Shown here one piece after another: positions 24,219-59,315 of a stretch of DNA of 64,000 nt. The notes under the pieces are model-generated. The model ran no database searches. It saw only the letters and a list, made by a program, of their open reading frames with translations, and had not been told where the DNA came from. The stretch is from Argopecten irradians (taxonomy: Eukaryota; Mollusca; Bivalvia; Pectinida; Pectinidae). Made by a program: the position numbers and the translations under genes. Position 1 is the stretch's first letter. Every line of letters begins with the position of its first letter. The stretch is taken from positions 54,881,944 to 54,945,943 of the forward strand of contig NC_091134.1 of NCBI RefSeq assembly GCF_041381155.1. Direction: 5' to 3'.

Positions 24219-24599
24219 TTACACTTTCGTTGCTTTGAAAAAAGAAAGATTGTATGTTGGTGGTTCCGGTGACTCGGGATCAGGCAAGATCCCACAAATG
24301 AAATCATTTGCTGGGGAAACTGGCTGTATAGATGTTACATCATCAGCCAACGTATTGGTGAAATCTGTTTCCCTTTCATCCCTCACTGGAGTTGCTGCTC
24401 CCGAAGACATATCTGATTTTTTATGTAGCCTGGATCCTAAATGCTTTTTCAGTTTTTCGTTGGTTTGGAAACGTTTTTTACAAGTGGTACACTGGAATTC
24501 CGATAGTTCCCAAGATAAGTGTGTCTCTATATGTCGCCTTAATCCTTGTTTGGTGGTTAACTTCTTCTCACAAACGTCACAGTTGAAGGTCTTGCTCAT
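24219..24599 (-). CDS. C2H2 zinc-finger protein encoded inside the LTR element
   Basis: 126 codons from the ATG at 24599 (an upstream in-frame ATG at 24698 would add 33 residues). Starting MSKTF, it carries two C2H2 fingers: C-x2-C-x12-H-x3-H (CDVCEKK...HIETH) and C-x2-C-x12-H-x5-H (CTTCKKR...HLGSRLH). An acidic, Pro/Ser-rich tail of about 60 residues ends SFFKATKV. It lies after the pol relic and about 1.6 kb before the 3' LTR, the place env occupies in some gypsy elements. The frame is intact although pol is ruined. It could bind nucleic acid; role unknown. Confidence 0.65.
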   Translation of the reverse strand: MSKTFNCDVCEKKLTTKQGLRRHIETHLSWELSEFQCTTCKKRFQTNEKLKKHLGSRLHKKSDMSSGAATPVRDERETDFTNTLADDVTSIQPVSPANDFICGILPDPESPEPPTYNLSFFKATKV

Positions 24600-24779
24600 A
24601 CTGGTGAAAGTCCGGAATGGTCGCTGGGTCTTATAGTTAATTAACAATTTTGTCCATTTTCCCACACTGCTCAGAGGTGCCGGCCACGTTTGACACATGA
24701 CATCTACTATGAAGTTCTAGATTATGTCAATTTAATTGTTCTGACACTCATCCAACTAGTCCCGTATCTACGATCCCAT

Positions 24780-30455: not shown

Positions 30456-31200
30456 TCAACCCTTGTATATCCGAGCCCTCGTAGGCTTCGTATCCAGCTT
30501 TGTCACATGTTCAATGTTCCAGTATTGGTAACGTTTTATCACTAAGGACACTGCAAATAAAACAAAACTGTATCAACCTGTGTTTAAACGTTATGAAAAT
30601 GGTCAAAGAAGTAATATCAACAGGATTTTCCAGATGAAAAGCAAACATAAATTTTCGCTTGCTGTATATATTTCATATATTTAATATTAGGTTACAAACA
30701 TATTAAACAAAACGTTTGTTGCCAGATTATCATCTTTTTCAGTATGACTTAATATTCATATTAATTAAATATAATTAAAATTAAATGATTACAGTCATCA
30801 GCAAAGGGAATACGTGTTAATAAAGAAAACGACATCACTCTTTGAAACCAATTGCAAAAATAGAAATTAATAATTGCTTTACAAAAATGTAATGCAGTCC
30901 TATTAAAGGTTGAGACTTATCTTTGTTCCAAAACTGTTTCATAACTTGTTTTAAAATTGTTGATGACTTATTGTGTTTCAAACCCAATTATAGCAATGAT
31001 ATACTCAGTAAAATATACTGAAATATAACTTGGAGCGTACCTTTTGATTTTAAGGATGCTGAGGCCTTGCTGATGAACGCCGCCGTTAGGAACATTGCGA
31101 TGGTATAGAAGATGCATACCAACATCAGTATCACGCCTTTGATATCGAACCCCGATTTTGTTTCTAGTCTATTTAATCGTCTCACTGCAGGAGATTCCAT
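30456..31200 (-). CDS. Single-pass membrane micropeptide, paralogue A (84 aa)
   Basis: Two coding exons on the minus strand: 31200-31041 (160 nt, donor GTACG) and 30550-30456 (acceptor TTTTATTTGCAG, stop TGA 30458-30456). The phase-1 junction gives Val54. The protein starts MESPAVRRLNRLETKSGF. One hydrophobic helix spans residues 22-43 and ends FLTAAFIS. A basic tail carries YQYWNIE and ends IYKG. There is no cleavable-looking signal; the basic N-terminus suggests a cytoplasmic N-terminus (inference). The second paralogue 7 kb upstream on the same strand has the same exon lengths and phase, which is strong support that this short ORF is real. I do not recognise the family; the function is unknown. 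Confidence 0.85.
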
Positions 31201-31238
31201 GTTGTATTAGTTTATGTCTTTACTTTGAGAAATCGTAT

Positions 31239-31467
31239 CTGAAATAAAATGTGCAAAGACTACATAAAAATGTGAAGTATTGCGTAAATCTTTCATATGT
31301 ATTATGGAGTATTCATACAAAAATCTCGACCGCGGTGTTGATCTTTATCTATCGAAGACATGATAACTTTCCAAAAACGATACCTACCAGTACCGGTATA
31401 GCAGGTGAATGATGGGACTAAGAGCTTACGGGACAACTCTAGGTATACATGTGAATTGTGACGTCAC
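31239..31467 (-). promoter_or_regulatory. Promoter, 5'UTR exon and UTR intron of paralogue A
   Basis: Reading on the minus strand: a GTGACGTCAC palindrome at 31458-31467, then a likely 5'UTR exon ending GGTAG before a GT donor at 31383-31382, then an intron ending TTTTATTTCAG at about 31240, 39 nt before the ATG at 31200. The same order is seen upstream of paralogue B. The transcription start itself is not visible. Confidence 0.55.
31458..31467. promoter_or_regulatory. CRE palindrome GTGACGTCAC upstream of paralogue A
   Basis: Full consensus cAMP-response element TGACGTCA, extended to a ten-base palindrome, about 260 bp before the start codon. Such sites bind CREB/ATF bZIP dimers (family knowledge). 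Paralogue B has the identical ten bases at nearly the same distance. Confidence 0.6.
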
Positions 31468-33424
31468 CAGTTCTGGCTGCTGTCTACATGTACGGTATAT
31501 TATAATCAGCTGATAATTTCCGGAGTAAGTTCAAGTTCAAGGTAGCAGACCATGCATGTCATGAGTGTTATAAATACACTACCGCGTAAGTCCCATGTAG
31601 ATATCACGAGAGGGTGGCCAAATGCAGGAAGTATAATGTGTGGGGGCTACGTGAGGTGTTTTACAACACCATTGTAGAGTCCCCATTTGTATTTTGAACA
31701 TTACACAAGATCGTTCAGCACAATTTATCGTCAATCGATTGCAGGTCGTGTTTTTACGGTGATATTCACCTGGACATCTTTTTTTGTGAAATTGTATCTT
31801 CAAAGTGACAAATTACATGCATAATCAATTAGAGAAAAAATATGCAAATACATGAAATTAAAGTCTGTGTGACCTTTTGACCTGTCCCAATTTGACTTAT
31901 TAATCTATCGGGGAAATATTACTTTAACATGTATTGAATTCAATTACATGTATCTATGATGTGGAATTTGACTGTTCTAAAAAATCATCAATTGCAATCA
32001 CAGTTAACACAGAGGTTTCAACTTTATCAGACGACTGATGATTTTATAGCGGATAATAATCGAAGGTCTAGACAACTAGACAACATAGTGACCATGCAAC
32101 TGTAGCAATTATGTCTGAATCGCCAGTGGTGTCTGCTCGACTTTTTAATTATGTATACTAAAGACATTTAAAGTGAATAGTCGGGCAAAGGAAACCAGTC
32201 TAAATGCGTTCTTTGGCCTTCCAAAAGTCATTGTATACCATAATGATGGTCAAGTTCTGCTTACGGTGTCCAGTTTTGACCATTGAAATTTTGGGGAAGC
32301 CCCGTGTAAATTTAGCACAGTTCTAAATATAAATTCGCCAAACTCTTTGAAAACGAGGCTGCGTGGAAATGTCAACATGGACATGTGTTTCTCAGTCGTG
32401 TCGGTTTCGTTTCGTGTGATAAACCACTAATGCGGTATGCAAATTGTTGTTTTGAGATGATACATTTGATGCAAATGAAGTATTCTTACATTAATGACAA
32501 TGCTTTGTAATCATTTTTCGATAAAAGCATCTTGTACATGGAAATCGACACAAATATTCGGCCGATGCAGAGATGGGGCCCCGGCAAGGGGCAATTATTG
32601 CAGCATCGCATTCGTCGTATTTTACATCAACCGAATCATGAAGGTTAAATACAAATAATCGTAACATAATTTCCCATTTAAAACCACACGAAAACGTTCC
32701 ATAGAACGTCCATGCATGTAGCTGTCAAAGATGTGAAAATAAATTAGCTCATACATAGATATTTTACAAGTACAATATATGTGTTCAATTATTCGTGTAG
32801 TTTTTTGCAGAGATTTAATTAAATTATCTATGTCTCTGGTTTTTTTTTGTAAACAATATTTGAGTTCTGGAGAGAGATGACATGAATGTCCAGCTGGAAG
32901 GAAAGAAACTTTTATGATGTATATGTATCGTACAATGTATATATGTAAACGTACATTCCATGTAGCTGCTATAGAATTACAACTAGGAAATTCTCTCAAA
33001 CATTGATAATATTTAATTCTTCACATTCATGTAGGCCTATGCTGTGGGAATTAACACACCATATATATTTCCAGAAAACATATCGGCCTACATGTATGTT
33101 ACTTTCCTTTTCTGTTGTTTCCTGTTCATTTTTGTGCTCTGGAGAAAAAGATGATTGAGTTGAAGAAAAGTAATTAATTAAGAGAAATGTGTACCACAGT
33201 ACTTTGTCTGTAGCCGAGGGGTTCTATACTGTTTTAATAGTCCAGTAATTAATAATTAAATTGAAAATTTCAAAATTAAGATGAAATTGTAAATTCCATT
33301 TTTGAATGAAGTGGTTCCCCTCCTTTGAGAGTACACAGTGTGTATACCCTTTTTAGTTTTTAGGAATAATACCTGAATAGGAACCTGAAATAACATGACA
33401 ATCAATCAGGTATGTGTGTGTTGG

Positions 33425-33452
33425 GGGTGGGGGGGGGGGGGGGGGGGGGGGG
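33425..33452. repeat. Poly-G tract
   Basis: Nearly uninterrupted run of about 27 G after GGGGGT. Could form G-quadruplexes, and is also a typical site of length error. Confidence 0.9.
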
Positions 33453-33478
33453 CTAAAAGACAGAAGAATCATGAGGAT

Positions 33479-33723
33479 GGGAAGTTGTAACTTGAGTGGG
33501 GGGTTGAAATATAGAAGAAATAGCTACAGATAACTGGAAGTGGAAGGGTGTTTTATCATTGATCTGGCCATTGCATATTTGGGGTTTACATGGCTTTTTT
33601 TTGGTTATTTAGTCTCATTGATTTTGGAGCAACTTTGAATCCATATGGTACTGTATATCTTTCTTTTTTCCATGTGTAGCTATTTCTTCTGTATTTCACC
33701 CTCAGCCCAAGTCACAACTTCCC
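33479..33723. repeat. Inverted repeat, about 48-bp arms, 148-nt spacer
   Basis: GGGAAGTTGTAACTTGAGTG ... AGAAGAAATAGCTAC (33479-33527) pairs with GTAGCTATTTCTTCT ... CAAGTCACAACTTCCC (33676-33723). Confidence 0.75.
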
Positions 33724-35741
33724 AATAGGTACCACTTTTTTGTTTAGAACTCAAATCAAAGACAGATGTACATAGTACTACATACTACATTTTAGTCTAT
33801 GTGTTTGTAATCACTGTTACTACAGTATTAATACATAAATGGTCTATGTACAAGTTACACATAGACAATAAATGTGAAATTTGGTTCAGACAAAAAGATT
33901 TTTAACATTTCAGATAACTTGCTAGTTTTATGGTTTTATTTATATGTTGAGTCTACTCTCTTGTAAAGTAGAATTTAGAAATCCTAAGACAATGGTATCT
34001 ATATTGCTATATGTAAAAAAAAATCCTTATATTTTAAAAGTAATTGAAAAGCTATCTCACAAGCCCTGACAAACAAATGGGCCGGCATATGGATGCAAGA
34101 ATTATAATCACTGGATCTAGAGGACTAATATAAACAAATATTTCTACAAAGTTAAACAATGAAAAAGTATTGCATCATAATTTTATTTAATGATTACAGT
34201 TGAAAGGAACATTTAATGAATTAATACTGTTTAAATGTTCTGTTCATGATCTTCTAGGTCCATATTGGAAAAGTTTACTTTCAAGAGCACTCATATCAAC
34301 ATTCTTCAGTCTTCATATGATGCTAATTGTATGTATATGTATACATACACTTGTATACAGGTCCAAGGGATGAACTTTCTGTATTCATGTCACTATGCAT
34401 GCATGGTGCCTGAAAAAAAGAACCAACAATTTTTTATATCTGTTGAATATGACAAAAATTGAAATGATCAATTTCAAATATATATAAATGAATAAATGTA
34501 GGTTCATTCTACAGGGTTTTTTTTATTTTAGAGAAAACATTTTATAAGTTGTGAATGTGTCACTGATGCATTTGATAGAATCAAATATTGTTTCAAAAAA
34601 GATACAAAATTCATTATCTATAGTTCCAACAAAAATTCAGAATAATTATAAATGATACATGGCTGCAGTACATTTCAACTCTGTAAAGTTTGTCATATAC
34701 ACATGAACCAGGTACAGTTGTAATAAATATACAAACACTATTTATTATTATGACCAGAAATAATACTGTATGTGTCCTCCAAATATATCTAAAGAACAAG
34801 CTAAAACCTACATATACATATGTATATGTGTATATCAGAACATATACAATACAATTTTACCAATTAACCTACAATGTAAATCCTATATACAATGTATGTG
34901 TATAACACTACCAGAACATGTACAGAACAAAAATTTACAAATTAAAAATCTATAAATATATACATCAGAACTGTATGAATTGACCGGTAGCATAATATTA
35001 TAGATTAATTGAAACAAATCTTAGCTTGATAATGCACTAGCGGTTACATTCTAACTGTACATGCATTACAACGGTACATTTTATAAATATACAGGGCATT
35101 CATTACCCCTAAAGAGGCCCCACGAAAGAACCGCTATTTACCCCAGGGTTACGTTTTACGCGATTGGGGAACAGGTATGAAACATGTGACCATATGTGAC
35201 CACTCATTTATGAAAAAAATACTGCTAGGGACTATTTACATAATGATCAAAATACGAAGACTCACTCACTATCAGCTGAGCAGGGAGTACCGGGTAGTAG
35301 GCCTAGGTACGTACAGTAGCGGTCCGGAGCCGCGTGCTCGTTTGAACTGTTCTCTTCACTATAACAAGTTGTATTAACACTCTCAATGCGTCGTAATGTT
35401 TACCGAGTCATTTGTTGGGATTGTCGCTGCTCCATTGCCTTTCCTTTCGCATTTTAGGTGAGTCAGTTGGTTGTTTTGGCGGAAACCTTTTGGTTCAAAA
35501 CTACGGTAGCCATGTTTTGTTTACTACGGAGAGTGGTGGATGTTGCGCATGCGTTAAGGTTGAACTGCACTCATAGCCGGTCGGGAGGACTTTTAGGATT
35601 CCCATAGATATTATTATTTTCTTCGCATGTACAGCGATTTTGACGGAAAGTTTTATTTTTCTAATTCATAAGAAATTATACCGGATATATTAATACCATT
35701 TTTACCGATTTTACAGTCACTTGCCCGACTATTCGCTTTAA

Positions 35742-36859
35742 GACAATGATACCAAGCATAAAAAGTAATAGTTTAACAAACTAAATAAAGAACCAGAGCC
35801 CATTTCACGAACATTCCTTCACTTTGAGGAAATCTTTTTGAAATGATCCATCGGAAAACATTATTTAAAGGCAAGTTAATGTCATTAACTTTAGGGTTTT
35901 TTCTCGTGCTTCTTTAATATGCTTTCCTATGGCGAAAGTTTAAGTTAATGGACATGCTGTAGTTCCTGAGAAAGTAGAAGAGGTGCTTCAGTTCAATGAA
36001 AATCTGATTAGTTGGTAATAAATTGGTTCCCAAATCATAGAAAATGATACAAAACATATTTTTCAGATCATGAAAATAAGTCTATTTACGTATAAAATTA
36101 TAAAATTTTAGCTACTAAATGGGATTGTCAACGACAAACGTAAAACAACTAATGGCTCAGGGCTGCGTTCACGTTTCCTCTCTACGTTTGTGGAGTTTTA
36201 GTTTCGTAAAAGATAACATTTTAATATCATGGTTTCGAATCAGTCGGTATGTAATCTATACTGGGGTAGATTAACTCACAAAAAGATTTTGCAGTCAGAT
36301 CCTAAACTGTAAGTCAGACAGCTACAGTCGTTCCTTGTTTGCGGTTTGACGACTGTAACTGCACAAACTAATGTTGAATGCTAATCCAACGCGAAAGATC
36401 ATCCAGGTATTTGATGACGTTATATGGTTTGATCATTTACAGAATCCTTTATAAATATAAATCAGATAATTTTAGGGGAACAACAGCAAATTGTGATATG
36501 GTTTATCAGCCGTGCCACTTTTACAGATTAAAATAAATGTTTTGACAAAATGTATCTTAGATCAAATCTATTTCTGTATATTTCTTGTCAGACGTGGTTT
36601 TGATACCTATTAAGGAATAAGACTTGGTATCACCATCTCAGCGAAGGAATTCAAGAAAATTTAAAGGAATTCTAAAAAATTGGGTCATTTTAATAACTTG
36701 TATATCAATTGTAACAGAAAATGTCGGGATCGTTGAAAATAAATTATAGTTGTGCATTCAACTCCTATATATCTTGGTAGGTCTCCATGATCAATTTTTA
36801 TAGTACGTGAATACACACGAATAGACATATTCCGGGTATTTCAAAAGAAAACATAAACA
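35742..36859. other. Non-coding spacer
   Basis: Between the TTAA-bounded element and the 3' end of micropeptide gene B; no ORF or repeat recognised. Confidence 0.4.
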
Positions 36860-37836
36860 ATGAAATAGTATTATGTAATTTATTAACAACGGTTCTCTGT
36901 GAAAAACAACAGAATTTAACAATATACAAAAATTTATTATCATCATCTTTCACACACGAACTCTGGTGACTACCTTGTGCACATTTGATGATCCATACAG
37001 TCTTTCATTCTCGTATACTCTCACACAAACTTTCAATGTAAATGACATGGGGTCTCTTATAATTAATGAAAGGTTTACACAAATATTCAATTGATGAAAG
37101 CACGATGTATGTCAATGATTGAAATTATCATCAAGACTTGATAAAACGATGGATTTTGTATGGTAATTCTCTCATACTTACAAATAAATTTTACATTTTA
37201 ATTGTTCAATATTTTTCAAATTGTTGAAAATAACTTATCCGGAGAGATCAAAACAAATGAAGTCTCTCAAGATATTTTTTCTCGGTAATGTCTGTGTACA
37301 ATTAACATCAAGCTCCTATTCTAAGTAAAACTCGCTTGTTGTGTATCGTCCATAGTAACACATGGCACACAATTTATACTCAGTCAAACTATTATGATCA
37401 GTGTAACTACATTCATGCTATAACAATATGGCAGTTCAGTTTGAGACAGAACATCTCGATCGTTTTGACAAATGTCGCCGAATACTTTCTTTGAGAAGGT
37501 CGCCGCATATTTTGGGCAATTTTAGTGGACGCGGTATTCAAAACCTTGGCTGTCTAAATCATGCATGCCAGTCTGTGGAGTTCAGGCGCATTTGTATTGC
37601 ACAGAAAATAACACCGTGTATGTTACATACATGTGAGCGTCTAGTCCACGGGTTAGTTCAATTCCACATCGAGTAGATGAATCGCACAATCGCAAAGTTC
37701 CAAAATGTCCTTCTGCAATGAAGTGATAGACACCGTCACAGAACCCTGGGACATTTGGTCGTCGTTTGGTGACAATAGTCATCTGTTAATGACATTGCTG
37801 TCTAATGAGATTCAATAGATGTTACATAAGCGATGC
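36860..37836 (-). other. 3'UTR of paralogue B with polyadenylation signal
   Basis: About 970 nt after the stop, ending in the same hairpin-like block (36913-36895) and AATAAA (36884-36879) on the minus strand. ORFs of 60-80 codons inside it on either strand have no support. Confidence 0.55.
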
Positions 37837-38537
37837 TCAGCCTTGGTAGATGTGTTTCGTCGTACGAACGCTGGCTGGCTTTACGGCTAGATTTGTCTGC
37901 TGTTCAATACTCCAGAACTGGTAGCTCTTCAGCGTTGTGGAAACTGTAAGTACAAAGACGAGGGATGTGGTATATCTTATGAAGTATTAAAATTATAAAT
38001 GAAGTAAATATTTACATGATATGTCAGTCCGAATATTTTCCATCTTAAAAAGTTATGTAATCATCAGTGGTTAACCAATTAAATTAACGGAAATACATTA
38101 CATATGGGTTTTTTTTTCTTCTCAATTTATTTTAGAAGTGTTGGTTTATATTAAACCATTACCATTATATAAACCGGATTTAGATTACTAATATCGACTT
38201 CTTAGATCATCAGCAAAGCTATTAAAATGTTTAAAAGGATTTCAGTTATTACGGACACATACAACTCATCAGCAAAGTTATTAAAATGTTTAAAAGGATT
38301 TCAGTTATTACGGACACATACAACTCTATGAATATATGGATCCTTCATTTTATAACTAAGAAAATTTAAAACCATACCTGATGACATTGCGGAGGCGGCC
38401 GCCTTGCTGACAAATGCTGCCGTTAGAAATATCACTATGGCATACATGAAGCAAGCTGATGTCAAAACTATGGTCTTAAGTTCGAACCCCGCCTTGGGCT
38501 CAATCCTTGGAAGTCGTCTGTCTGTTGAACAATCCAT
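37837..38537 (-). CDS. Single-pass membrane micropeptide, paralogue B (88 aa)
   Basis: Coding exons 38537-38378 (160 nt, donor GTATGG) and 37943-37837 (acceptor TTTGTACTTACAG, stop TGA 37839-37837), phase-1 junction. The first 53 residues align without gaps to paralogue A, 26 of them identical. Shared parts are RRL-R-E-K-GF at the N-terminus, FLTAAF-SKA-AS at the end of the membrane helix, and after the intron YQFWSIE and a final IYQG. The exon-2 part is four residues longer than in A. The intron contains a 59-bp tandem duplication. No known family recognised; conservation across the two copies argues for a selected protein. Confidence 0.85.
38208..38325. repeat. 59-bp tandem duplication in micropeptide gene B intron
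   Basis: 38208-38266 and 38267-38325 differ at a single base (AAGC/AAGT). A very recent duplication inside the intron. Confidence 0.95.
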
Positions 38538-38701
38538 TTTTAGACGCGGGTTCTATGGAGAAGTATATGATGCAAAACAATCTGAAAAATACAACAATCC
38601 TGACATGAAGACATGTGAAATATCAATTATAGTATCATCATTTATAATAAAACTTAAAAAAGGCTGTCACCATCATAAGCATTAAAGAAAAATCACCTAC
38701 C

Positions 38702-38787
38702 CACAGTGATGGCAAACTCCGAACTGATAACTACATAGAGCGTTTGGTGAGTGTATATAATACCACACTGGCAGTTAGTGACGTCAC
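38702..38787 (-). promoter_or_regulatory. Promoter and 5'UTR exon of paralogue B
   Basis: On the minus strand: GTGACGTCAC at 38787-38778, a TATA-like TATTATATAC about 20-30 nt further on (around 38760-38750), then a 5'UTR exon ending GGTAG at 38697 before GTGATT. A matching acceptor (GTATTTTTCAG) lies at about 38583, 46 nt before the ATG. The CRE-to-donor spacing is 82 bp here and 75 bp in paralogue A. Confidence 0.55.
38778..38787. promoter_or_regulatory. CRE palindrome GTGACGTCAC upstream of paralogue B
   Basis: The same ten-base CREB/ATF-type site as upstream of paralogue A, about 242 bp before the start codon and just upstream of a TATA-like sequence. Confidence 0.6.
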
Positions 38788-39713
38788 TACATACAGGTAC
38801 AAACTTCAGGTATACCTAGCGATTTCACGGTCAAGGTTCACGCGATCTGTTTCACGTGTAAAAGGATATTGAACATCATCAATAAACATTTTGTATAAGC
38901 ATTTATTATGCTATCTATATCGCATGGTTTAAAAAGAAAACATCTATAGAAAGGAATACTCGTTAATCAATCTGATATGTATTACCTATACACATCAGAG
39001 AAAATCAAGCGTAATTATCCTGTCAGCCAGAGAATCTCTGTTTCAACATATGGATACAAGCAGTAATTACCTAATTGATAATTATAAACTACACATATCA
39101 AGCAGATACAATGCAATCCATGCACCTGATCACGCCTGCCTACCGGCCCACGTTTATATATACACACGTGAACACTGTCTGTCCTTAGATGACCAGACTG
39201 GTGTCTAGCGCATTGTCAGCTTAATACGACCTTCACCATGCTAAGCTTTTAATTGAACACTTGTTCGTGTTCTCAAGCTAATTCTTTTATTGATCATATA
39301 GTAATTAGAAATGTCTATCATTAGAGGTGTACGTTGTACTTATAGATATGAGTGCTTAGATGTTCTATTTTAATATTGTAAGCTAACCGAGCTTTGATTA
39401 ATTCAAAGCTCATACCGTAAATATATGAAGCTAGATTAGTACTATAAATAGTATACCAAAAAGTCAAGGTCAGTTACAGGTAATAATAGCACGTGATTAT
39501 CAGCTGTAGTTGCCCCGTCTAGCCATTGTTTGAACACTATATCACAGGTGTTTCTGATAATTCTGTGGTATATACATGTACATGCATGATACTTATTTTT
39601 GTTTTGTCAAACCGCTTCAGTTTATTGTAAAATGTGTAATTTTTGCACATAGGTAAAAATGAGCAATGAAAACTAGAAATTATGATTATCAAAAATTGTT
39701 CATCATTAACAGC
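38788..39713. other. Non-coding upstream region of micropeptide gene B
   Basis: No ORF. Contains AGGTATAC-type words also seen near the gene A promoter. Confidence 0.35.
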
Positions 39714-39882
39714 AACCAATGATTTATAAGTATACGTCCTTACAACAACCAAGGATTTATAAGAATACGTCCTTACAACAACCAAGGATTTATAAGTATA
39801 CGTCCTTACAACAACCAAGGATTTATAAGTATACGTCCTTGCAACAACCAAGGATTTATAAGTATACGTCCTTACAACAACA
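39714..39882. repeat. 33-bp minisatellite, five copies
   Basis: Unit AACCAAGGATTTATAAGTAT then ACGTCCTTACAAC; the unit itself is partly palindromic (AAGGATTTATA / GGACGTAT). The same words recur at 40,846-40,905 and 40,970. The unit is a multiple of three, so frames stay open on both strands without being genes. Confidence 0.9.
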
Positions 39883-41099
39883 TACAAAAAAATGTATGTA
39901 ATTCTTTCTTTCTTTTTTTTTTGTGAAAAAAATATGGCCAATGCAAGATGTTAACAAATAATTAAATAAACCGGGTTCTTAATAACACCATAAAAAGAAC
40001 TTCTACTACATGTTTCATGTAAAACAATTAGGATACCTTTTAAGAGATACAGAATGATTGGTAATTTTATTTGTAATTTAAGTATATTTTGCATACATGC
40101 AAAACAGGGTATATAAAAAATTGATATAAAACAATGCAGAAAAATACAGAGGGTTAAAACATCAGTGAATACATTTTGCAGATGCCGCAAACAGATAAAT
40201 ATGTATGTTCCTGTAGACAGTGTAAACCCGAATGATGATGACATCTATTGCTTGAATGATGAAACCCTATCATGTTTATAAACAATTCCAATAGCCTGAA
40301 TCAGTAAATAATCAATTTCAAAGAAAACGTAGCATGTATATACTGATGTCTCAATAATTGCAACATTAAAACTTACCGTCATAAAAGTGTCGATCCTGGG
40401 ACTCTAACATCTACGTCTGATCCCGAATCCGTCTTTGTTTATAATGTGTACTTGCATGTTCGGAAAGCTACACATGCCATGATCATGAACTCACCACGTG
40501 CCTTTGTGTATATACACTGTGCTTACATTCAGTATCTACCTTTGAACCCGTTCCGGTCAGTTGCACACGGATCGGGCCAATTTTACACGGTGACCACGCA
40601 CTGGAAGCATGAACATACGGAGAGGTGCCCGTATGTTAGCCGTTCGTTATCGCTGTTTACATAATAATTAACCAAAGGCTATTGCCTTGGTAGCTAGATA
40701 ACTTATAGGCATGCTAAGCTGACTTACGTTATAATTTCACACATCACATAGGAAAGATCATTTATTTTTAACCACATTTAGTAATTCTAATTAGAAATTT
40801 ACATAGTACGTACGTGTATTTACAATGTAAATCTCTATCTATATCAAGGATTTATATACATCAAGGACGTATATATTCACTTATAAATCCTTGCTTACAT
40901 TAAGTTTTTTTTTATTTCATTACACATGTATATTTGACGAGAGGCATATACCTACACACCAAGGACGTATCCGTCCCACACGCAATTTAATATGTAGTTA
41001 GGATATTTATAGCGGATTAAGATGTATTCCAGAGTAAACATTTAAGGAAATATAGCCCTAGATATTTTTTATTAAAAACAAATCTCATAGAAAACGACG
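39883..41099. other. Non-coding spacer
   Basis: Scattered AAGGATTTATA/GGACGTAT words related to the 39.7-kb minisatellite. The 72-codon frame at 40,446 is unsupported. Confidence 0.35.
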
Positions 41100-53600: not shown

Positions 53601-56600
53601 ATAATATATAACAATCACTGTTTGATTTTCTGAACAAAATATCTTTAAATCACAATCCATTAGGTCGATTAGTTCCATGTCCTGTTCGCTCACAGCTCTA
53701 CTGTTCAATGGCGTTTTTTTCAATTTAGTTATTGTATTTATTTATTTAAATAATTTGTTAAGGGTTAAAGCCCTGTGGTTAGTGGTCTAACATCATGACC
53801 TACCATTTTGTTATGCGCTAAAAGTTAAGCATTTAGTTAGTACCAATTCATTAAGATTATTATTAATTTCAGAATAACAACTTGTGTCGCACTTTTCCTG
53901 TACAAACTCTGATGTGGCGAGACGACGGACGAGAACTGTCACGGGTCGGCGCTATCAACGTAAACGGAAAACTAATTTTACACTCAAAAATATTTCCAAA
54001 TGTAGATTTCGGTTTTAATCAAAGAAGATTCATTGTTTCTACGCAGCCAGTAAGTGAATCTATGTATGACGTCACTTCACCTCATGCTTACGAAAAATCA
54101 TGTTTTCATGTTACCTGGTTACAAAGTTTTATCCATGGGTCTACAGCGATGTATTAAAAATCAACATGTTTACATTAATTGTTTTTTAGTGTTTTCAGAT
54201 ATTTATAATCTCCAAGATATTTCAATATCTGTATATGTGTGTAAATAAATGGTTTAAGTGATCACAAAGTTATGGACGACAGGTTTATCTTACTTGACAT
54301 TATGGATAAAGTAATACAGTCAAAACCACATCATATACATGTACTAAGTAACCTACAACTTTAACGATGACAGATATATGCTGCAGGTGTATCCGTTTGA
54401 ATTCAGAACCAACACTTCCTTCGAAGGTCTATGTATTGATCTGTTGGCTCAGTTGGCAGTGGAACTAAATTTTACGTAAGTCAATGACAGTATCGATCGA
54501 AACTAACAATGTATATGGCTTTTTGGTATCCTAATGAAATTATCAAATTTAATTTGTGTTTTAGGCAATTATTTCGAAATACCTTGGTCTTCATTACCTA
54601 TTTTCCACCTAACACATGTTTGTTTCATTTAAATATTAATTTTAGCAGTTAGTGGCTGCAAGATACCAATTCACAATTGTTCTTTTCGAATATTTCGCTG
54701 TTGATGAGAAATCGCTAATATTATTTACTGCAAAAATTTGAAGTGCATATAACTAAATCGTCGAGAGAAAAAGTTTATGGTCACAGAAACGCAAATTAAG
54801 ATGTTATGGAAGTAATTTTATCCAAGCAACATTTGCTCGCATAAATGTTTCCTGAATAATAGCAGCAATATGATATTTTAGGATGATTGCTATTATTTTT
54901 TTAAAGTAAAGGTTTATGGTGGGTTTTTTACATCTTTATTCTGTTCAATCAGGTTTGAAGTGATACTACCTCCGGATGGAGATTTCGGAGTAATGTTGGA
55001 TAGTGGTAACTGGACAGGACTTATCGGACAGTTACAAAGACAGGTTCTTTTGTATTGTACACTATTGACCATTGTTTTATTATTTTTTCATAAATGTCGG
55101 AAAAATCATAATATCTGAAATTACTTATTATATAAATTATCTTATGGTCCAGCTGTTGTCATTCTATTCTCATGTAATAATTTGTTGATTTTACCTACCT
55201 TAGTATTGCGATTGCTGTCAACTAAGCAGAGAACGGTCACTCCTTTTGCACCTTTTGGGGGAGTTTTTGCTTAGATATTGTTTTGTTTTATTAAGTTTGG
55301 AAATTAAAAACATCATTAATCCATTTTTTAATTATTACTTCATCCAACGAGTTGGCGACAAAATGTATCAGAATAACAATTGTGATGACAGAAGCTTTGA
55401 GTAGTGAAGTTCATGAGAAAAGAAGTACGAGATTACCCTTGTTTTCGGTTTTGTCTTTAGGAAGTAGATCTTGTAGCAGCTCCCTTGTCGATAACTATTC
55501 AACGAGAACACGTCATGGATTTCATTCACCCATTTTTCCACGACCATTCTGTAGTTTTAATTCAAAAACCGGACCCACAAGAAACAAAATGGCGGACTTT
55601 GATCGACCCCTATAGTGACACTGTTATAATCAGTATAGGGATCTCCTTGCCACTGGCGTCACTTGTGCTTGTTGTCCTGGAAAACGTCAGCCCCGTCTAC
55701 ACGAGAGAGGAGAGGGAACTAAACGACAGTGATCTGAACTCCTTCCTGGGATCTTTCTGGTATCTGTTTGGAGCTTTGCTAACGCAAGGTAAAGTCCTTA
55801 TCCTTTTCCTTTTGTTCGCTGTTCGGTCAAAACGCCAGATATACATATATGACATATATGTGTAATTACATAATTGTTTGTCTGATCATTAAATTATTTT
55901 CTTCAATCCGTTATGTAATGAAATATTGTTACCTTTTTTTCAGTGCACTATGGTCTTATAGTGTTGTCTATCGATGGCATAGTACCCGAGCCGGAGGCGA
56001 TGGTACTATGCCATCATAAGACAACACTATAGTGCCCTCAAAAGCAGGCAATCATATATAAATGGTATATGGTAAAAATGTTATGATGGTAGATCAAAAT
56101 AACGGGGAAATAGTGGGTGATACAGAAATCCTTGATCTTGACTTTTCTTTAAGAGACTATCCTTAAGACATGTCGGATAGCAGCACATACATGTAAATTA
56201 TAAACGGTAAAGTAACGTTGAATGTATGTGATCCGCGCAGCATAATTGCTGTGGTAGGATATAAAGTTCTGACATAAAAAACATAAACAGAGCCATGAAA
56301 GCTTAATATTGTCTTTCTAAGAATCATTTAGCAGTCTAAACATACACTCTTTATTACTTTTATTTCAATTAGCTTAAAATTCAAGTTAGACCGAATTTTC
56401 TATATATGAATTTCCGGTGTTATTTACTCTATTATCATCCATTGGAACATTATATTGAATTATAATCATGTATGTACGTTCATTAGCATCATCAAGCGAC
56501 ACAGATGCGTGGTTATAATGTTTTTACTGCTTTAGATAAGAGGATTATTTTCCGGTATTAGACTTGCCCCACGTCAATTATCAAATGGTCTGATGCAAAC

Positions 56601-59315
56601 CTGACAGGAAATTAAAATTGCATGAGGATGTATTACTAAACTATAAAAGCGGCAGCTCACAATTTTCACATCCTTTTTAAAGTAATTTGAATATAAAATG
56701 CTGCTTAATATGAACTCCGTATACGGGATAACTAGGTATTGTAAGAATAAAATGACGGGGAACGCATAATGGTTTTGTAAACATGGCAAATGCAAATAGT
56801 CGAGAGAGTAAGATCAAATAATTAAATTGTAACACGTTTCATTTAATTTGGGCACGTAATTTCATTAGGATTAATGTCGTTATAAATTGGTATCATATAC
56901 CTAAAGAAAAAGAAAAAACAAACAAACAAACAAAAAAAAACATAAAAGGAAGTAGTAATACTTACTTTCCTCGCACACTTGATTCTGACAGCAAATTGTA
57001 TTAATATGATTATAAGAAGGCAGGAGTTATATCCCTTGGTCTTCAGGAATGCACAGTGACAACGCATCTTTTGATATTCTTCGATGCAGTAATACGTACA
57101 TATCTATTGTCTACATGAAATATGTGGTATATTATTATATACACTGTTTGTCCAAGCATTAAAACAAACATAAAAAGATATAGACTGATTACTATAAAGA
57201 GATATTATTCAGTACTAGTTAATGTACTTACCGGTATCAATGCATACATATATGGTTGCAATCGTATACTGAATATATATTGAATTGGTAAACTTAAACA
57301 TGTTTATTTTTAAAGAGGACAAACAGACATAATATAATACTAGCACATATTTAAAGAGTATTTAAAAAAAGTCACTGTGTTAGTATATTTTGCAATCATT
57401 AATCTTATAGTAAGTTTTAAGAAAACAATGTGAAACAACGTGAGACAAATGACAAAATACATGTATGAAATCAAATAAAACATAATTTCCAAAGATATGT
57501 TTTTCACGTCTGTAGAACTGTTTTAAAAAGAATCATAGCTTAGTTCAATTTGAATACTGCAGTTTTACCTTTGTTTTGAATTACTTTTGTTTACTTGCCT
57601 TTTCACGTGTTCCTGTCTTATCCCCAATACCTGTTGCTGTTCCAGGTGGGAAGTACACCCCCCATGCGCTCTCTAGCCGACTGTTTGTTGGTATGTGGTG
57701 GCTGTTTTGTATCATTTCTCTGGCGACATACAGCGGGAACCTCATCGCCTCGCTAACTGTCTCAAAAGAGAAACTGCCATTTACGTCTCTCAAAGAGATG
57801 GTGTCTCAGGATAATTTCAAATGGGGGACATATGGCGGCACTGTGTTTGTCACCATGTTTAAGGTAAATGGATTTCGGCGCATTTATAACAAAATCCCGT
57901 CTGGAATATATTGCATTTTACTTGTCTTGCAGATAATTCAATTGATTGCAAAACATCTAATTACTGAAAGAAACAATAGAACATGAAAATAACTGATCAT
58001 TGGAGGATATAATATGTTCATTTGACAAAAAAGAAGGCCTGAGCTGCTACTACATGTATTTTATTTCAGTTTCCATATACAATTATGTTAAAAGAATTTT
58101 GTTACTTTGACATTGTCAGTGAACTATATAATTTGACATTGTCAGTGAACTATATAATTTGACATTGTCAGTGAACTATATAATTTGACAATGTCAGTGA
58201 ACTATATTATTAACCGAATAATAAGAGAGAAAAATAGTGTTTACACCTGATAACTATTGAACATGTAGTGTTTACTTCTATTTTTGATCTTGATTACAGG
58301 ATTCTGTGATACCGGATTACAAAGCGATATGGCAAGGAATGGTCCGGTTTAACTCGACTGACCCATCCGTCCTTAACAAGAACCCTGACCAGCACATGCA
58401 GAAAGTCCTGGGAGGTCATTACGCCTACATAGCGGCTAAAACCGAGGTGGACACGCAGATGGCCAAACAGTGTGGCCTGGCTACCATTGACGAGAAGTTC
58501 CTACATATGCAGTATGCTTTTGGCGTTCCCAATAATTCACCATATACAGATATTTTCTCTCTTAAGTATGTTTTTACTAATTTGTATTGTTACGTTTTCC
58601 TTTCCATATGCCAATTGAAATAATGATCAGCTGATGAAACAAAACAATACCTTTGATTGACACACTAAAGTTTAGCTACAAAATAAAATACAAACTTTTC
58701 AGACATATTGTTTATTCTATTGATAATCATGTCGATGAATGTGCATCCAAAGTTACTGGATGCCTAACCTGTTAGCCTATTAATGAGGTATACTTTTGAA
58801 TAGTCCTTGAACGATGCTTGATTACTGATGAATTCCTGCATTTAAATGATCCTTTTTGTCATTATCGATAACTGAACATCAATATGCATTATGTAAATGA
58901 ATGATAAATGTTAAAGTATTTAAATCGCGGTTATCTATTAACCGTTCGATTTTCGATCAATTGAATTACAAAGGTGTGATTATATAAAGCTAATGGAAAC
59001 AATTAGGATGCTGTGATGTCTTTTAGCCGTAAATGTTTTTTTGTTATGTGTTTCAGAATCTTAAAGATTTTAGAGAGTGGGTTGATGAATATTTGGGAAA
59101 GAAAATGGTGGGCACGTCAGAAACTATGTTACGAGTTGACATGGGACCAGCGGAAGGTAATCAGCCTGATAGACGTCCAAAGTGCCTTTTACCTGATAGG
59201 TATAGGCATCGTGTTGGCTGTTGTAGTAATCGGACTAGAGTGGATCATCTACAGGATACTAAGTACTAGACCTACAGACTCGCATACTTCTGGGCCTTCA
59301 GCATTACCTGTATGA
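47560..59315 (+). CDS. Ionotropic glutamate receptor / IR-family channel subunit, 13 coding exons, 5' end incomplete
   Basis: Ligand-gated cation channel subunit of the plasma membrane. Exons: 47560-47605, 48481-48615, 49976-50314, 52513-52709, 53013-53183, 53306-53413, 53873-54049, 54387-54475, 54953-55043, 55461-55788, 57646-57863, 58300-58565, 59057-59315. All introns are GT-AG, and the phases agree at every junction, giving 2,424 nt (807 aa plus TGA). Order: N-terminal ligand-domain-like region (about 1-370), S1 ligand half (about 370-500, with PLSITIQRE), M1 (504-524), pore loop (545-561, FWYLFGALLTQG), M3 (573-600, TYSGNLIAS in place of the SYTANLAAF motif), S2 (600-760), M4 (765-787), and a short cytoplasmic tail. 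The ligand-binding Arg of S1 is kept (R466). The acidic residue of S2 that binds the amino-acid amine in AMPA receptors aligns with Ala679, so glutamate may not be the ligand. The pore Q/R position is Thr559. The signal peptide exon is not found, so one or two 5' exons are probably missing. Family is clear; subfamily (divergent iGluR versus IR-like) is not. Confidence 0.93.
48481..48615 (+). CDS. Receptor exon, N-terminal domain
   Basis: 135 nt after the acceptor ctttcag; donor gtaag. Only one frame is open. It includes NPCGYNGNFTNTTHH, with potential N-glycosylation sites NFT and NTT, then HVPNGIMWVRLQ. It ends with a single C that joins TG of the next exon to give Leu. No long open frame starts here, so the exon is easy to miss. 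Confidence 0.8.
49976..50314 (+). CDS. Receptor exon, N-terminal ligand-domain-like region
   Basis: 339 nt encoding 113 residues of the extracellular N-terminal lobe, including LVIMSSKLMRAFP, a CFPC dicysteine and WWSYQAMTFADAIFEHL. Acceptor tttgaacag, donor gtaagt at 50315. It starts in phase with two bases and leaves a C that pairs with AG of the next exon to give Gln. Confidence 0.88.
50668..51083. mobile_element. MITE with about 110-bp inverted terminal repeats (in a receptor intron)
   Basis: GGGATACTTAC ... GTATACGCATACGGAGACGT then ATTTGACTG-GATCGATC at the left (50668-50780) is mirrored at 50970-51083. The interior of about 190 bp has no ORF. Superfamily not assigned; the target duplication is unclear. 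Confidence 0.8.
51261..51359. repeat. Short foldback, 30-bp arms
   Basis: ATAGAGCGCATCCTTGCACA at 51261 pairs with TTGTTCAAGGATGCACTCTA at about 51339-51358. Confidence 0.65.
52378..52405. repeat. Poly-T tract
   Basis: A run of about 26 T in the receptor intron upstream of exon 52,513. Possibly the tail of a minus-strand retroposed copy; no body recognised. Confidence 0.8.
52513..52709 (+). CDS. Receptor exon, N-terminal domain
   Basis: 197 nt beginning AG-CAT-CTC after the acceptor gttgaag; donor gtaagg. It encodes HLVDVLLDHW...YAVEQMSEEDIVAVLESV, the helix-strand pattern expected in a periplasmic-binding-protein-like lobe. The polypyrimidine tract is weak, but phase fixes the acceptor. 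Confidence 0.85.
53013..53183 (+). CDS. Receptor exon, N-terminal domain
   Basis: 171 nt, phase 0 at both ends (acceptor ctatttacag, donor gtatcg). It encodes VSDYSQKHIRDSAIQHHTHW then MLFLFSNDVIGER, a helix followed by a hydrophobic strand. Confidence 0.88.
53306..53413 (+). CDS. Receptor exon, end of N-terminal domain
   Basis: 108 nt, phase 0 at both ends, after a strong pyrimidine-rich acceptor (cttgtttctgttacag); donor gtaagg. It encodes TCQSIESILLADECPEHGTL... and ends GRIFHD. The two cysteines may form a disulfide in the extracellular domain (inference). Confidence 0.88.
53873..54049 (+). CDS. Receptor exon, linker into ligand-binding S1
   Basis: 177 nt, phase 0 at both ends (acceptor ttaatttcag, donor gtaagt). 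It encodes LMWRDDGRELSRVGAINVNG then KIFPNVDFGFNQRRFIVST, the start of the S1 ligand-binding half. Confidence 0.9.
54387..54475 (+). CDS. Receptor exon, ligand-binding S1
   Basis: 89 nt after the acceptor atgctgcag; donor gtaagt; ends in phase 2. It encodes VYPFEF then FEGLCIDLLAQLAVELNFT, the iGluR S1 signature of the form G-CIDLL--LA--L-F. Confidence 0.93.
54953..55043 (+). CDS. Receptor exon, ligand-binding S1
   Basis: 91 nt after the acceptor gttcaatcag. It encodes FEVILPPDGDFGVMLDSG then NWTGLIGQLQRQ, matching the conserved W-G-IG-L motif of iGluR S1. The donor is a weak gttctt, and the exon ends in phase 0. Confidence 0.92.
55461..55788 (+). CDS. Receptor exon, end of S1, M1 and pore loop
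   Basis: 328 nt after the acceptor ttttgtctttag; donor gtaaag. It contains VAAPLSITIQREHVMDF with the ligand-binding Arg, then TKWRTLIDPY, the M1 helix, and the re-entrant pore loop FWYLFGALLTQG. A stop-free shadow frame overlaps it but lacks any domain. Confidence 0.96.
55945..56034. repeat. Foldback around GGTACTATGCCATC in receptor intron
   Basis: GCACTATGGTCTTATAGTGT then GATGGCATAGTACC pairs with GGTACTATGCCATC then ATAAGACAACACTATAGTGC. The loop CGAGCCGGAGGCGA is GC-rich. The cryptic acceptor in front (TTTTTTTCAG) is not used in the model. Confidence 0.8.
57646..57863 (+). CDS. Receptor exon, M3 and start of S2
   Basis: 218 nt after the acceptor gttgctgttccag; donor gtaaat. It encodes TPHALSSRLFVGMWWLFCII then TYSGNLIASLTV, the M3 gating helix, followed by the first part of S2. 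Confidence 0.96.
58108..58211. repeat. 26-bp tandem repeat, four copies, in receptor intron
   Basis: Unit TTTGACATTGTCAGTGAACT then ATATAA. Copies differ at one or two positions; the unit contains the inverted word TTGACA-TGTCA. Confidence 0.92.
58300..58565 (+). CDS. Receptor exon, ligand-binding S2
   Basis: 266 nt after the acceptor cttgattacag; donor gtatgt; ends in phase 2. It encodes most of S2, including VLGGHYAYIAAKTEVD and KQCGLATIDEKF. The Cys matches the conserved disulfide cysteine of S2. AAK stands where classical receptors carry the amine-binding Glu. Confidence 0.95.
59057..59315 (+). CDS. Receptor last coding exon, M4 and C-tail
   Basis: 259 nt after the acceptor tatgtgtttcag, ending at TGA 59313-59315. 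It encodes KILKILESGLMNIWERKWWA (the end of S2, with a following Cys for the disulfide), the M4 helix FYLIGIGIVLAVVVIGLEW, and a tail of about 20 residues with no obvious PDZ ligand. Confidence 0.95.

What the first reader, a model, noticed from the sequence alone, without database searches (positions are those of the whole stretch)
30456..38537. Tandem pair of undescribed single-pass membrane micropeptide genes
Two minus-strand ORFs, 7 kb apart, have first coding exons of exactly 160 nt, the same phase-1 intron, 26 of 53 identical residues in exon 1, and matching exon-2 motifs (YQ-W-IE, final IY-G). The membrane helix end FLTAAF-SKA is the best-kept part. Both would be missed by length filters. 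This conservation in sequence and structure indicates selected proteins of 84 and 88 residues with no family I recognise.
Basis: partly seen in the sequence, partly recalled or inferred. Interest (0 to 1): 0.8.

Follow-up and report, generated by a model that had tools for sequence, protein, structure and literature searches.

The report
Scallop pair of small membrane proteins
Two neighbouring genes, probably from a scallop, each encode a small protein of fewer than 90 amino acids with one predicted membrane-spanning helix; the genes look real and have relatives in the Yesso scallop, but their function is unknown and this kind of gene is not unusual.

Summary
Two minus-strand genes (A: 31200-31041 + 30550-30456, 84 aa; B: 38537-38378 + 37943-37837, 88 aa) share a 160-nt first coding exon, a phase-1 intron, 26 of 53 exon-1 residues and 42 of 84 overall, and diverge like coding sequence (dN 0.36, dS about 1.6). 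A protein identical to spliced A exists in a public source on contigs of at most 1193 nt, most simply a spliced transcript; nothing similar came up for B. The Yesso scallop has two relatives with consecutive locus tags, annotated as hypothetical, so the pair probably predates the split and the window is probably scallop DNA. No Pfam family or solved structure matches significantly. A CRE palindrome, GTGACGTCAC, lies about 250 bp upstream of both start codons and nowhere else in the window: suggestive only. Best reading: a family of single-pass membrane microproteins, perhaps accessory subunits of a larger membrane protein; a new member of a known kind, with function, partner and tissue open. 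'Missed by length filters' is wrong for the Yesso scallop.

The parts
31041..31200 (-). Gene A coding exon 1 (160 nt, 53 codons + 1 nt): N-terminus and membrane helix
   Evidence: ORF and donor read directly; inside the spliced protein P0003
30551..31040 (-). Gene A phase-1 intron, 490 nt, GT-AG
   Evidence: absent from P0003, whose 84 residues run across it
30456..30550 (-). Gene A coding exon 2 (95 nt with stop): C-terminal 31 residues
38378..38537 (-). Gene B coding exon 1 (160 nt)
   Evidence: relative P0004 in M. yessoensis, 39 of 53 identical over exon 1
37944..38377 (-). Gene B phase-1 intron, 434 nt, GT-AG; holds a 59-nt tandem duplication at 38207-38326
37837..37943 (-). Gene B coding exon 2 (107 nt with stop): C-terminal 35 residues, with a 4-residue insert relative to A
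   Evidence: P0004 and P0005 have the insert too
31458..31467 (.). CRE palindrome GTGACGTCAC, starting 267 nt upstream of the A start codon
38778..38787 (.). CRE palindrome GTGACGTCAC, starting 250 nt upstream of the B start codon; TATATA starts at 38759
31239..31387 (-). Putative 5'-UTR intron of A, 149 nt (GTAGGT ... TTTATTTCAG), ending 38 nt before the ATG; inferred
   Evidence: read; donor place
38582..38700 (-). Putative 5'-UTR intron of B, 119 nt (GTAGGT ... TTTTTCAG), ending 44 nt before the ATG; inferred
   Evidence: read; donor place

Best explanation
SHOWN: A and B are two intact, intron-bearing paralogues of one small-protein family under purifying selection. They are the only two exon-1 matches found in this genome (a lower bound, by the tool's own note), and M. 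yessoensis has two relatives with consecutive locus tags. PREDICTED: the protein has a short N-terminus, one hydrophobic helix of about 20 residues (around residues 22-42) and a basic C-terminal tail. INFERRED: the proteins are single-pass membrane microproteins that act as accessory or regulatory subunits. The helix sits in a cellular membrane and binds a larger membrane partner, or its paralogue, through the kept end of the helix (FLTAA..S.A..S); the tail, with the kept YQ.W.I followed by E or D, makes the contact at the membrane surface. A CREB/ATF-type factor on the shared CRE would switch both genes on together. The confidence below is for the identity (a real, selected, spliced family of small, predicted membrane proteins); I put the accessory-subunit mechanism at about 0.35 and CRE control at about 0.4.
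For: Gene reality. Splicing of A: P0003 is identical over 84 of 84 residues, source tag 'lgn', 4 contigs, longest 1193 nt. Relatives: P0004 (KP79_PYT06857, 62 of 88 identical to B) and P0005 (KP79_PYT06858, 50 of 84 identical to A), both listed with a longest contig of 1,868,261 bases. Orthology: 3 of 3 informative two-and-two sites group A with P0005 and B with P0004. Copy number: 2 exon-1 matches in the 845.8-Mb genome, no further copy in 20 kb on each side of the window (best E 0.62 over 11 residues). Membrane helix: best 19-residue hydropathy 2.3-2.5 at residues 23-41 in the three proteins tested, A, B and P0004; AlphaFold2 helix 20-73 (A) or 16-73 (P0004), block pLDDT 85-91 over residues 21-40. 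FLTAA and YQ.W.I are invariant in all four proteins. Shared CRE.
Against: No transcript-type hit for B was returned. The 'lgn' contigs were not seen, and a splice-aware prediction on a genomic contig could give P0003 too (the A coding span is 745 nt). dS is near saturation. A co-positioned shared word of 10 nt or more occurs in 221 of 2936 random 600-nt pairs, and GTGACGTCAC occurs 4 times in 200 kb of control DNA, so the CRE rests on being a known site, chosen after the fact. Conservation shows no significant helical face (12 tests, p 0.30-0.83), so a binding face has no statistical support. No partner, location or tissue is known. AlphaFold confidence is low (mean pLDDT 66, pTM 0.3), and the fold search found nothing.
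Confidence: 0.88

Rival explanations
1. Reproductive (sperm or spermatid) membrane proteins: lineage-restricted, quickly changing, testis-expressed under a CREM-like factor acting on the CRE.
For: Only 50 of 84 (A) and 62 of 88 (B) residues kept against the putative M. yessoensis orthologues; the only organism named among the hits is M. yessoensis; CRE upstream of both genes. That CREM drives spermatid genes in mammals: titles and abstract starts in the listing, and recalled.
Against: No expression data at all; CREs drive many other genes too; purifying selection between the copies; none of the 12 papers shown of 61 contains the word mollusc.
Confidence: 0.2
2. Small subunits or assembly factors of a mitochondrial inner-membrane complex, as the Drosophila single-pass pair Sloth1/Sloth2 is for complex III.
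For: Small size, one predicted helix and a paralogous pair resemble Sloth1/Sloth2 (79 and 61 aa, one predicted helix each; passages of PMC9681215).
Against: No significant Pfam match; such subunits are usually kept across animals (recalled), whereas no hit outside scallops came up, within the weak reach of the search; residues 2 and 13 are acidic in A and B, so the N-terminus is not a clear mitochondrial targeting sequence (read from the sequence, no predictor run).
Confidence: 0.15
3. Endosomal or ER regulator that works like Hemotin/Stannin (88-aa single-pass peptides that bind 14-3-3zeta).
For: Same length class and one helix (passages of PMC4807881).
Against: No stannin model among the Pfam matches of the family proteins (that Pfam holds such models is recalled). 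No direct comparison was run.
Confidence: 0.08
4. Chance ORFs or a decayed duplicate, not genes.
For: Short proteins; no transcript-type hit for B; no third species checked.
Against: Selection pattern, kept intron phase, a protein identical to spliced A, and annotated relatives.
Confidence: 0.02

Closest known systems
Mizuhopecten yessoensis hypothetical proteins KP79_PYT06857 and KP79_PYT06858
   Same: Same family: 62 of 88 residues shared by 06857 and B, 50 of 84 by 06858 and A; consecutive locus tags and the same listed contig length; both have the 4-residue insert that B has and A lacks.
   Different: Annotated only as hypothetical. KP79_PYT06858 is annotated with 25 more N-terminal residues; the window copies have in-frame stops 9 and 18 nt before their ATGs.
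Sloth1/Sloth2 (SMIM4/C12orf73), Drosophila and human
   Same: Pair of paralogous microproteins with one predicted membrane helix each (passages, PMC9681215).
   Different: Drosophila pair is encoded on one bicistronic transcript and conserved in other eukaryotes (passages); the genes here are 7 kb apart, each with its own intron. No sequence comparison with them was run.
Hemotin/Stannin
   Same: 88-aa class, one membrane helix (passages, PMC4807881).
   Different: No stannin model among Pfam matches; 14-3-3 binding not testable here.
Phospholamban/sarcolamban, FXYD and KCNE accessory peptides
   Same: General kind: small single-pass proteins that regulate a larger membrane protein (recalled; no call).
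   Different: None of these models among the Pfam matches.

Membership tests
M. yessoensis KP79_PYT06857/06858 family | Full-length sequence homology | tested here: met
   Profile E 4.1e-39 for KP79_PYT06857; E 3.0e-38 for KP79_PYT06858 with a query alignment that held two artificial consensus rows; identities
M. yessoensis KP79_PYT06857/06858 family | Genes adjacent in both species | tested here: inconclusive
   Neighbours here; in M. yessoensis inferred from consecutive locus tags and the same listed contig length; DNA not seen
Single-pass membrane microproteins (under 100 aa) | Dedicated ORF under 100 codons, under purifying selection | tested here: met
   84 and 88 aa; dN 0.36, dS 1.6 between the copies
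Single-pass membrane microproteins (under 100 aa) | One membrane helix | tested here: met
   Prediction only: hydropathy and AlphaFold2 helix of low overall confidence
Single-pass membrane microproteins (under 100 aa) | Protein made and found in a membrane | not testable with these tools
   No expression or location data on hand
Hemotin/Stannin | Recognisable stannin sequence | tested here: not met
   No stannin model among Pfam matches at E up to 10 for the 4 family proteins (HMMER's filters drop most matches above about 0.1; that Pfam holds stannin models is recalled)
Hemotin/Stannin | Binding to 14-3-3zeta | not testable with these tools
   Needs a bench assay
Sloth1/Sloth2 (SMIM4/C12orf73) | Sequence homology | tested here: inconclusive
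   Only chance-level Pfam matches; no direct comparison was run
Sloth1/Sloth2 (SMIM4/C12orf73) | Mitochondrial complex III role | not testable with these tools
   Needs a bench assay
Phospholamban/FXYD/KCNE accessory peptides | Match to the family model | tested here: not met
   No such family among Pfam matches; that Pfam holds these models is recalled

The most novel reading that the evidence does not exclude
A scallop-born two-part membrane microprotein: the paralogues A and B, kept together as neighbours since before the split of two scallop lineages and both driven by a cAMP-response element, form an obligate heteromer through the small-residue ladder at positions 40/44/48 (A, S, and A or T in all four proteins) and control a channel, pump or receptor in a cAMP-responsive tissue such as gonad or nerve. 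This would be a new family with no counterpart in other animals.
Probability: 0.08. Interest if true: 0.55.

Novelty: new member of a known kind. Interest (0 to 1): 0.3.

Why it matters
It shows that selected, apparently spliced small membrane proteins sit among the hypothetical genes of bivalve genomes, and offers a pair, with homologues in a second species, for asking how a lineage gains a membrane microprotein. A lineage-restricted microprotein pair with a shared promoter element would be a tractable test case. As it stands, it is one more uncharacterised small gene family.

Tried and rejected
Deeper homology: three protein searches of 5.77 billion sequences gave only P0003, P0004 and P0005. 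The absence elsewhere is weak evidence: the search needs shared exact 5-residue words, and P0004 as a lone query did not even find P0003, which is 57% identical to it (identity). Bacterial and archaeal genomes: 88 pattern matches, none a relative, as expected for a gene with spliceosomal introns.

Fold search of the A model against the PDB gave no match with E up to 10. Sequence search of solved structures gave only chance-level hits: six haemoglobin sequences at E 0.28-0.43 and a geopilin domain at 0.43, and the geopilin domain at 0.78. Pfam gave SieB at E 0.067 and Nudc_N at 0.14, one of 4 members each; rejected as chance.

Conserved helical face: tested on invariance and on BLOSUM scores over six stretches each, none significant (p 0.30-0.83); dropped as evidence. 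Antisense ORF at 38356-38685: the matching frame of A holds a stop, and third positions of the minus frame vary most; rejected. The YN00 estimate of dN/dS failed. A bacterial-type promoter and terminator scan upstream of B found nothing and is not informative here. Rfam: no match in the window.

Papers: the two locus tags are in no paper of the library searched. Searches with scallop, micropeptide and small-ORF terms (20 of 384 shown), with scallop, lineage-specific, testis and membrane terms (11 of 11 shown) and with Mizuhopecten and CREB terms (8 of 6,221 shown, none holding the species name) showed no title on these genes. Of two papers, both found in the listing, I saw passages; of all others only listings.

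Full report
OBSERVATION. On the minus strand, A runs 31200-31041 and 30550-30456 and encodes 84 residues; B runs 38537-38378 and 37943-37837 and encodes 88. Each first coding exon is 160 nt, so both introns are in phase 1; the introns are 490 and 434 nt with GT-AG ends. In-frame stops lie 9 nt (A) and 18 nt (B) before the start codons, so the starts are well fixed. A and B share 26 of 53 residues in exon 1 and 42 of 84 aligned residues in all.

MORE THAN CHANCE. tblastn on the window finds each copy from the other and nothing else below E 1. Differences at codon positions 1, 2 and 3 are 27, 19 and 48 of 85 codons, stop codon included; two counting methods give dN 0.36 and dS 1.5-1.6, a third failed. 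The ratio is 0.22-0.24, but dS is close to saturation, so it is rough. A simple neutral simulation at the observed third-position divergence keeps 8.6 +/- 2.6 of 53 exon-1 residues (maximum 20 in 2000 runs) against 26 observed, and 1831 of 2000 runs acquire a stop. Exons align at 62.5% and 63.2%, the intron at 49%, the flanks at 41-50%.

TRANSCRIPT. P0003 is identical to spliced A over 84 of 84 residues and comes from a source tagged 'lgn', on 4 contigs, the longest 1193 nt. I take 'lgn' to be the Logan assemblies of public reads (recalled; the output does not say). A protein that runs straight across a 490-nt intron is most simply read from spliced RNA, but the contigs were not seen and a splice-aware prediction on genomic DNA is not excluded. 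No such hit was returned for B.

RELATIVES. Mizuhopecten yessoensis has KP79_PYT06857 (P0004, 88 aa) and KP79_PYT06858 (P0005, 113 aa), consecutive locus tags, both listed with a longest contig of 1,868,261 bases. Identities: A with P0005 50 of 84, A with P0004 48 of 84, B with P0004 62 of 88, B with P0005 54 of 88, P0004 with P0005 60 of 88. The 3 informative two-and-two sites all group A with P0005 and B with P0004, so the duplication probably predates the split; three sites are few. No hit names another organism, and P0003 carries no name. The window is therefore most likely from a scallop, but the species was not identified. The genome holds 845.8 Mb and its contig C1 is 75.5 Mb long. Exon 1 of B finds two places in it, the two known copies (the tool calls such counts lower bounds); no copy lies within 20 kb on either side of the window. 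The search with full-length A did not complete.

PROTEIN. A, B and P0004 have one hydrophobic stretch, best at residues 23-41. AlphaFold2 gives one long helix, residues 20-73 (A) or 16-73 (P0004), with block pLDDT 85-91 over residues 21-40 but mean 66 and pTM 0.3. FLTAA at the helix end and YQ.W.I in exon 2 are invariant in all four proteins; the E after it is D in P0004, and the final IY.G is IN.G in P0005. The C-terminal part is net +8, +4 and +5, the N-terminal part +2, +1 and +1, in A, B and P0004, which leans weakly to a cytosolic C-terminus. The helix shows no significant conserved face. Residues 40, 44 and 48 are small in all four proteins (read), a ladder that could pack helices; I did not test it against chance.

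PROMOTERS. GTGACGTCAC, a full cAMP-response element (name recalled), occurs twice in the window, starting 267 and 250 nt upstream of the two ATGs; dinucleotide shuffles expect 0.01. Real DNA holds more: 4 in 200 kb of control (20 loci of 10 kb from C1; two of the four are 59 nt apart in one locus), and 2 in a repeat within the 40 kb of flanks. As a bare shared word of 10 nt or more at a like distance it is not rare, 221 of 2936 random pairs. It is suggestive because it is a known site, but it was picked after the fact. Each gene also shows a GTAGGT donor and a CAG acceptor that would make a short 5'-UTR intron (149 nt in A, 119 nt in B; read); these are inferred.

FUNCTION. No family was found: Pfam gives nothing for A and B and only chance-level matches in the four-member scan; solved structures give none of note; Foldseek none. 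The likeliest mechanism is an accessory single-pass subunit of a larger membrane protein, at about 0.35; reproductive, mitochondrial and endosomal rivals are listed. Sloth1/Sloth2 (passages) show that a paralogous pair of such peptides can act together, and Hemotin (passages) that an 88-aa single-pass peptide can have a defined role. These are likenesses in kind, not membership.

VERDICT. It is a new member of a known kind, of modest interest until expression, location or a partner is known.

Noticed in passing
window 55461-57986 (+): Exons of an ionotropic glutamate receptor gene: Lig_chan E 1.7e-12 at 57516-57986, above the curated cut-off, with weaker Lig_chan-Glu_bd and Lig_chan matches below their cut-offs at 55461-55865 (10 of the 35 listed ORFs scanned). 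Neighbourhood with the pair is probably coincidence.
   Followed up: partly
window 24219-24716 (-): C2H2 zinc-finger coding stretch, two fingers.
   Followed up: no
window 32168-35741: Inverted 21-nt ends, 95% complementary, 3532 nt between them, with TTAA at both outer ends: looks like a TTAA-type DNA transposon between the two genes, about half of the stretch that separates them.
   Followed up: no
window 38207-38326: 59-nt tandem duplication, two copies, 98% matches, inside the B intron.
   Followed up: no
L006 2286-3623: Three pairs of TGACGTCA sites, 20 nt apart within a pair and 709 and 600 nt from pair to pair; the first two pairs lie in near-identical sequence. A repeated CRE-bearing element in the flank of the window.
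   Followed up: no
window 39709-39881: 33-nt tandem repeat, 5.2 copies, within a 137-codon minus-strand stop-to-stop frame at 39537-39950.
   Followed up: no
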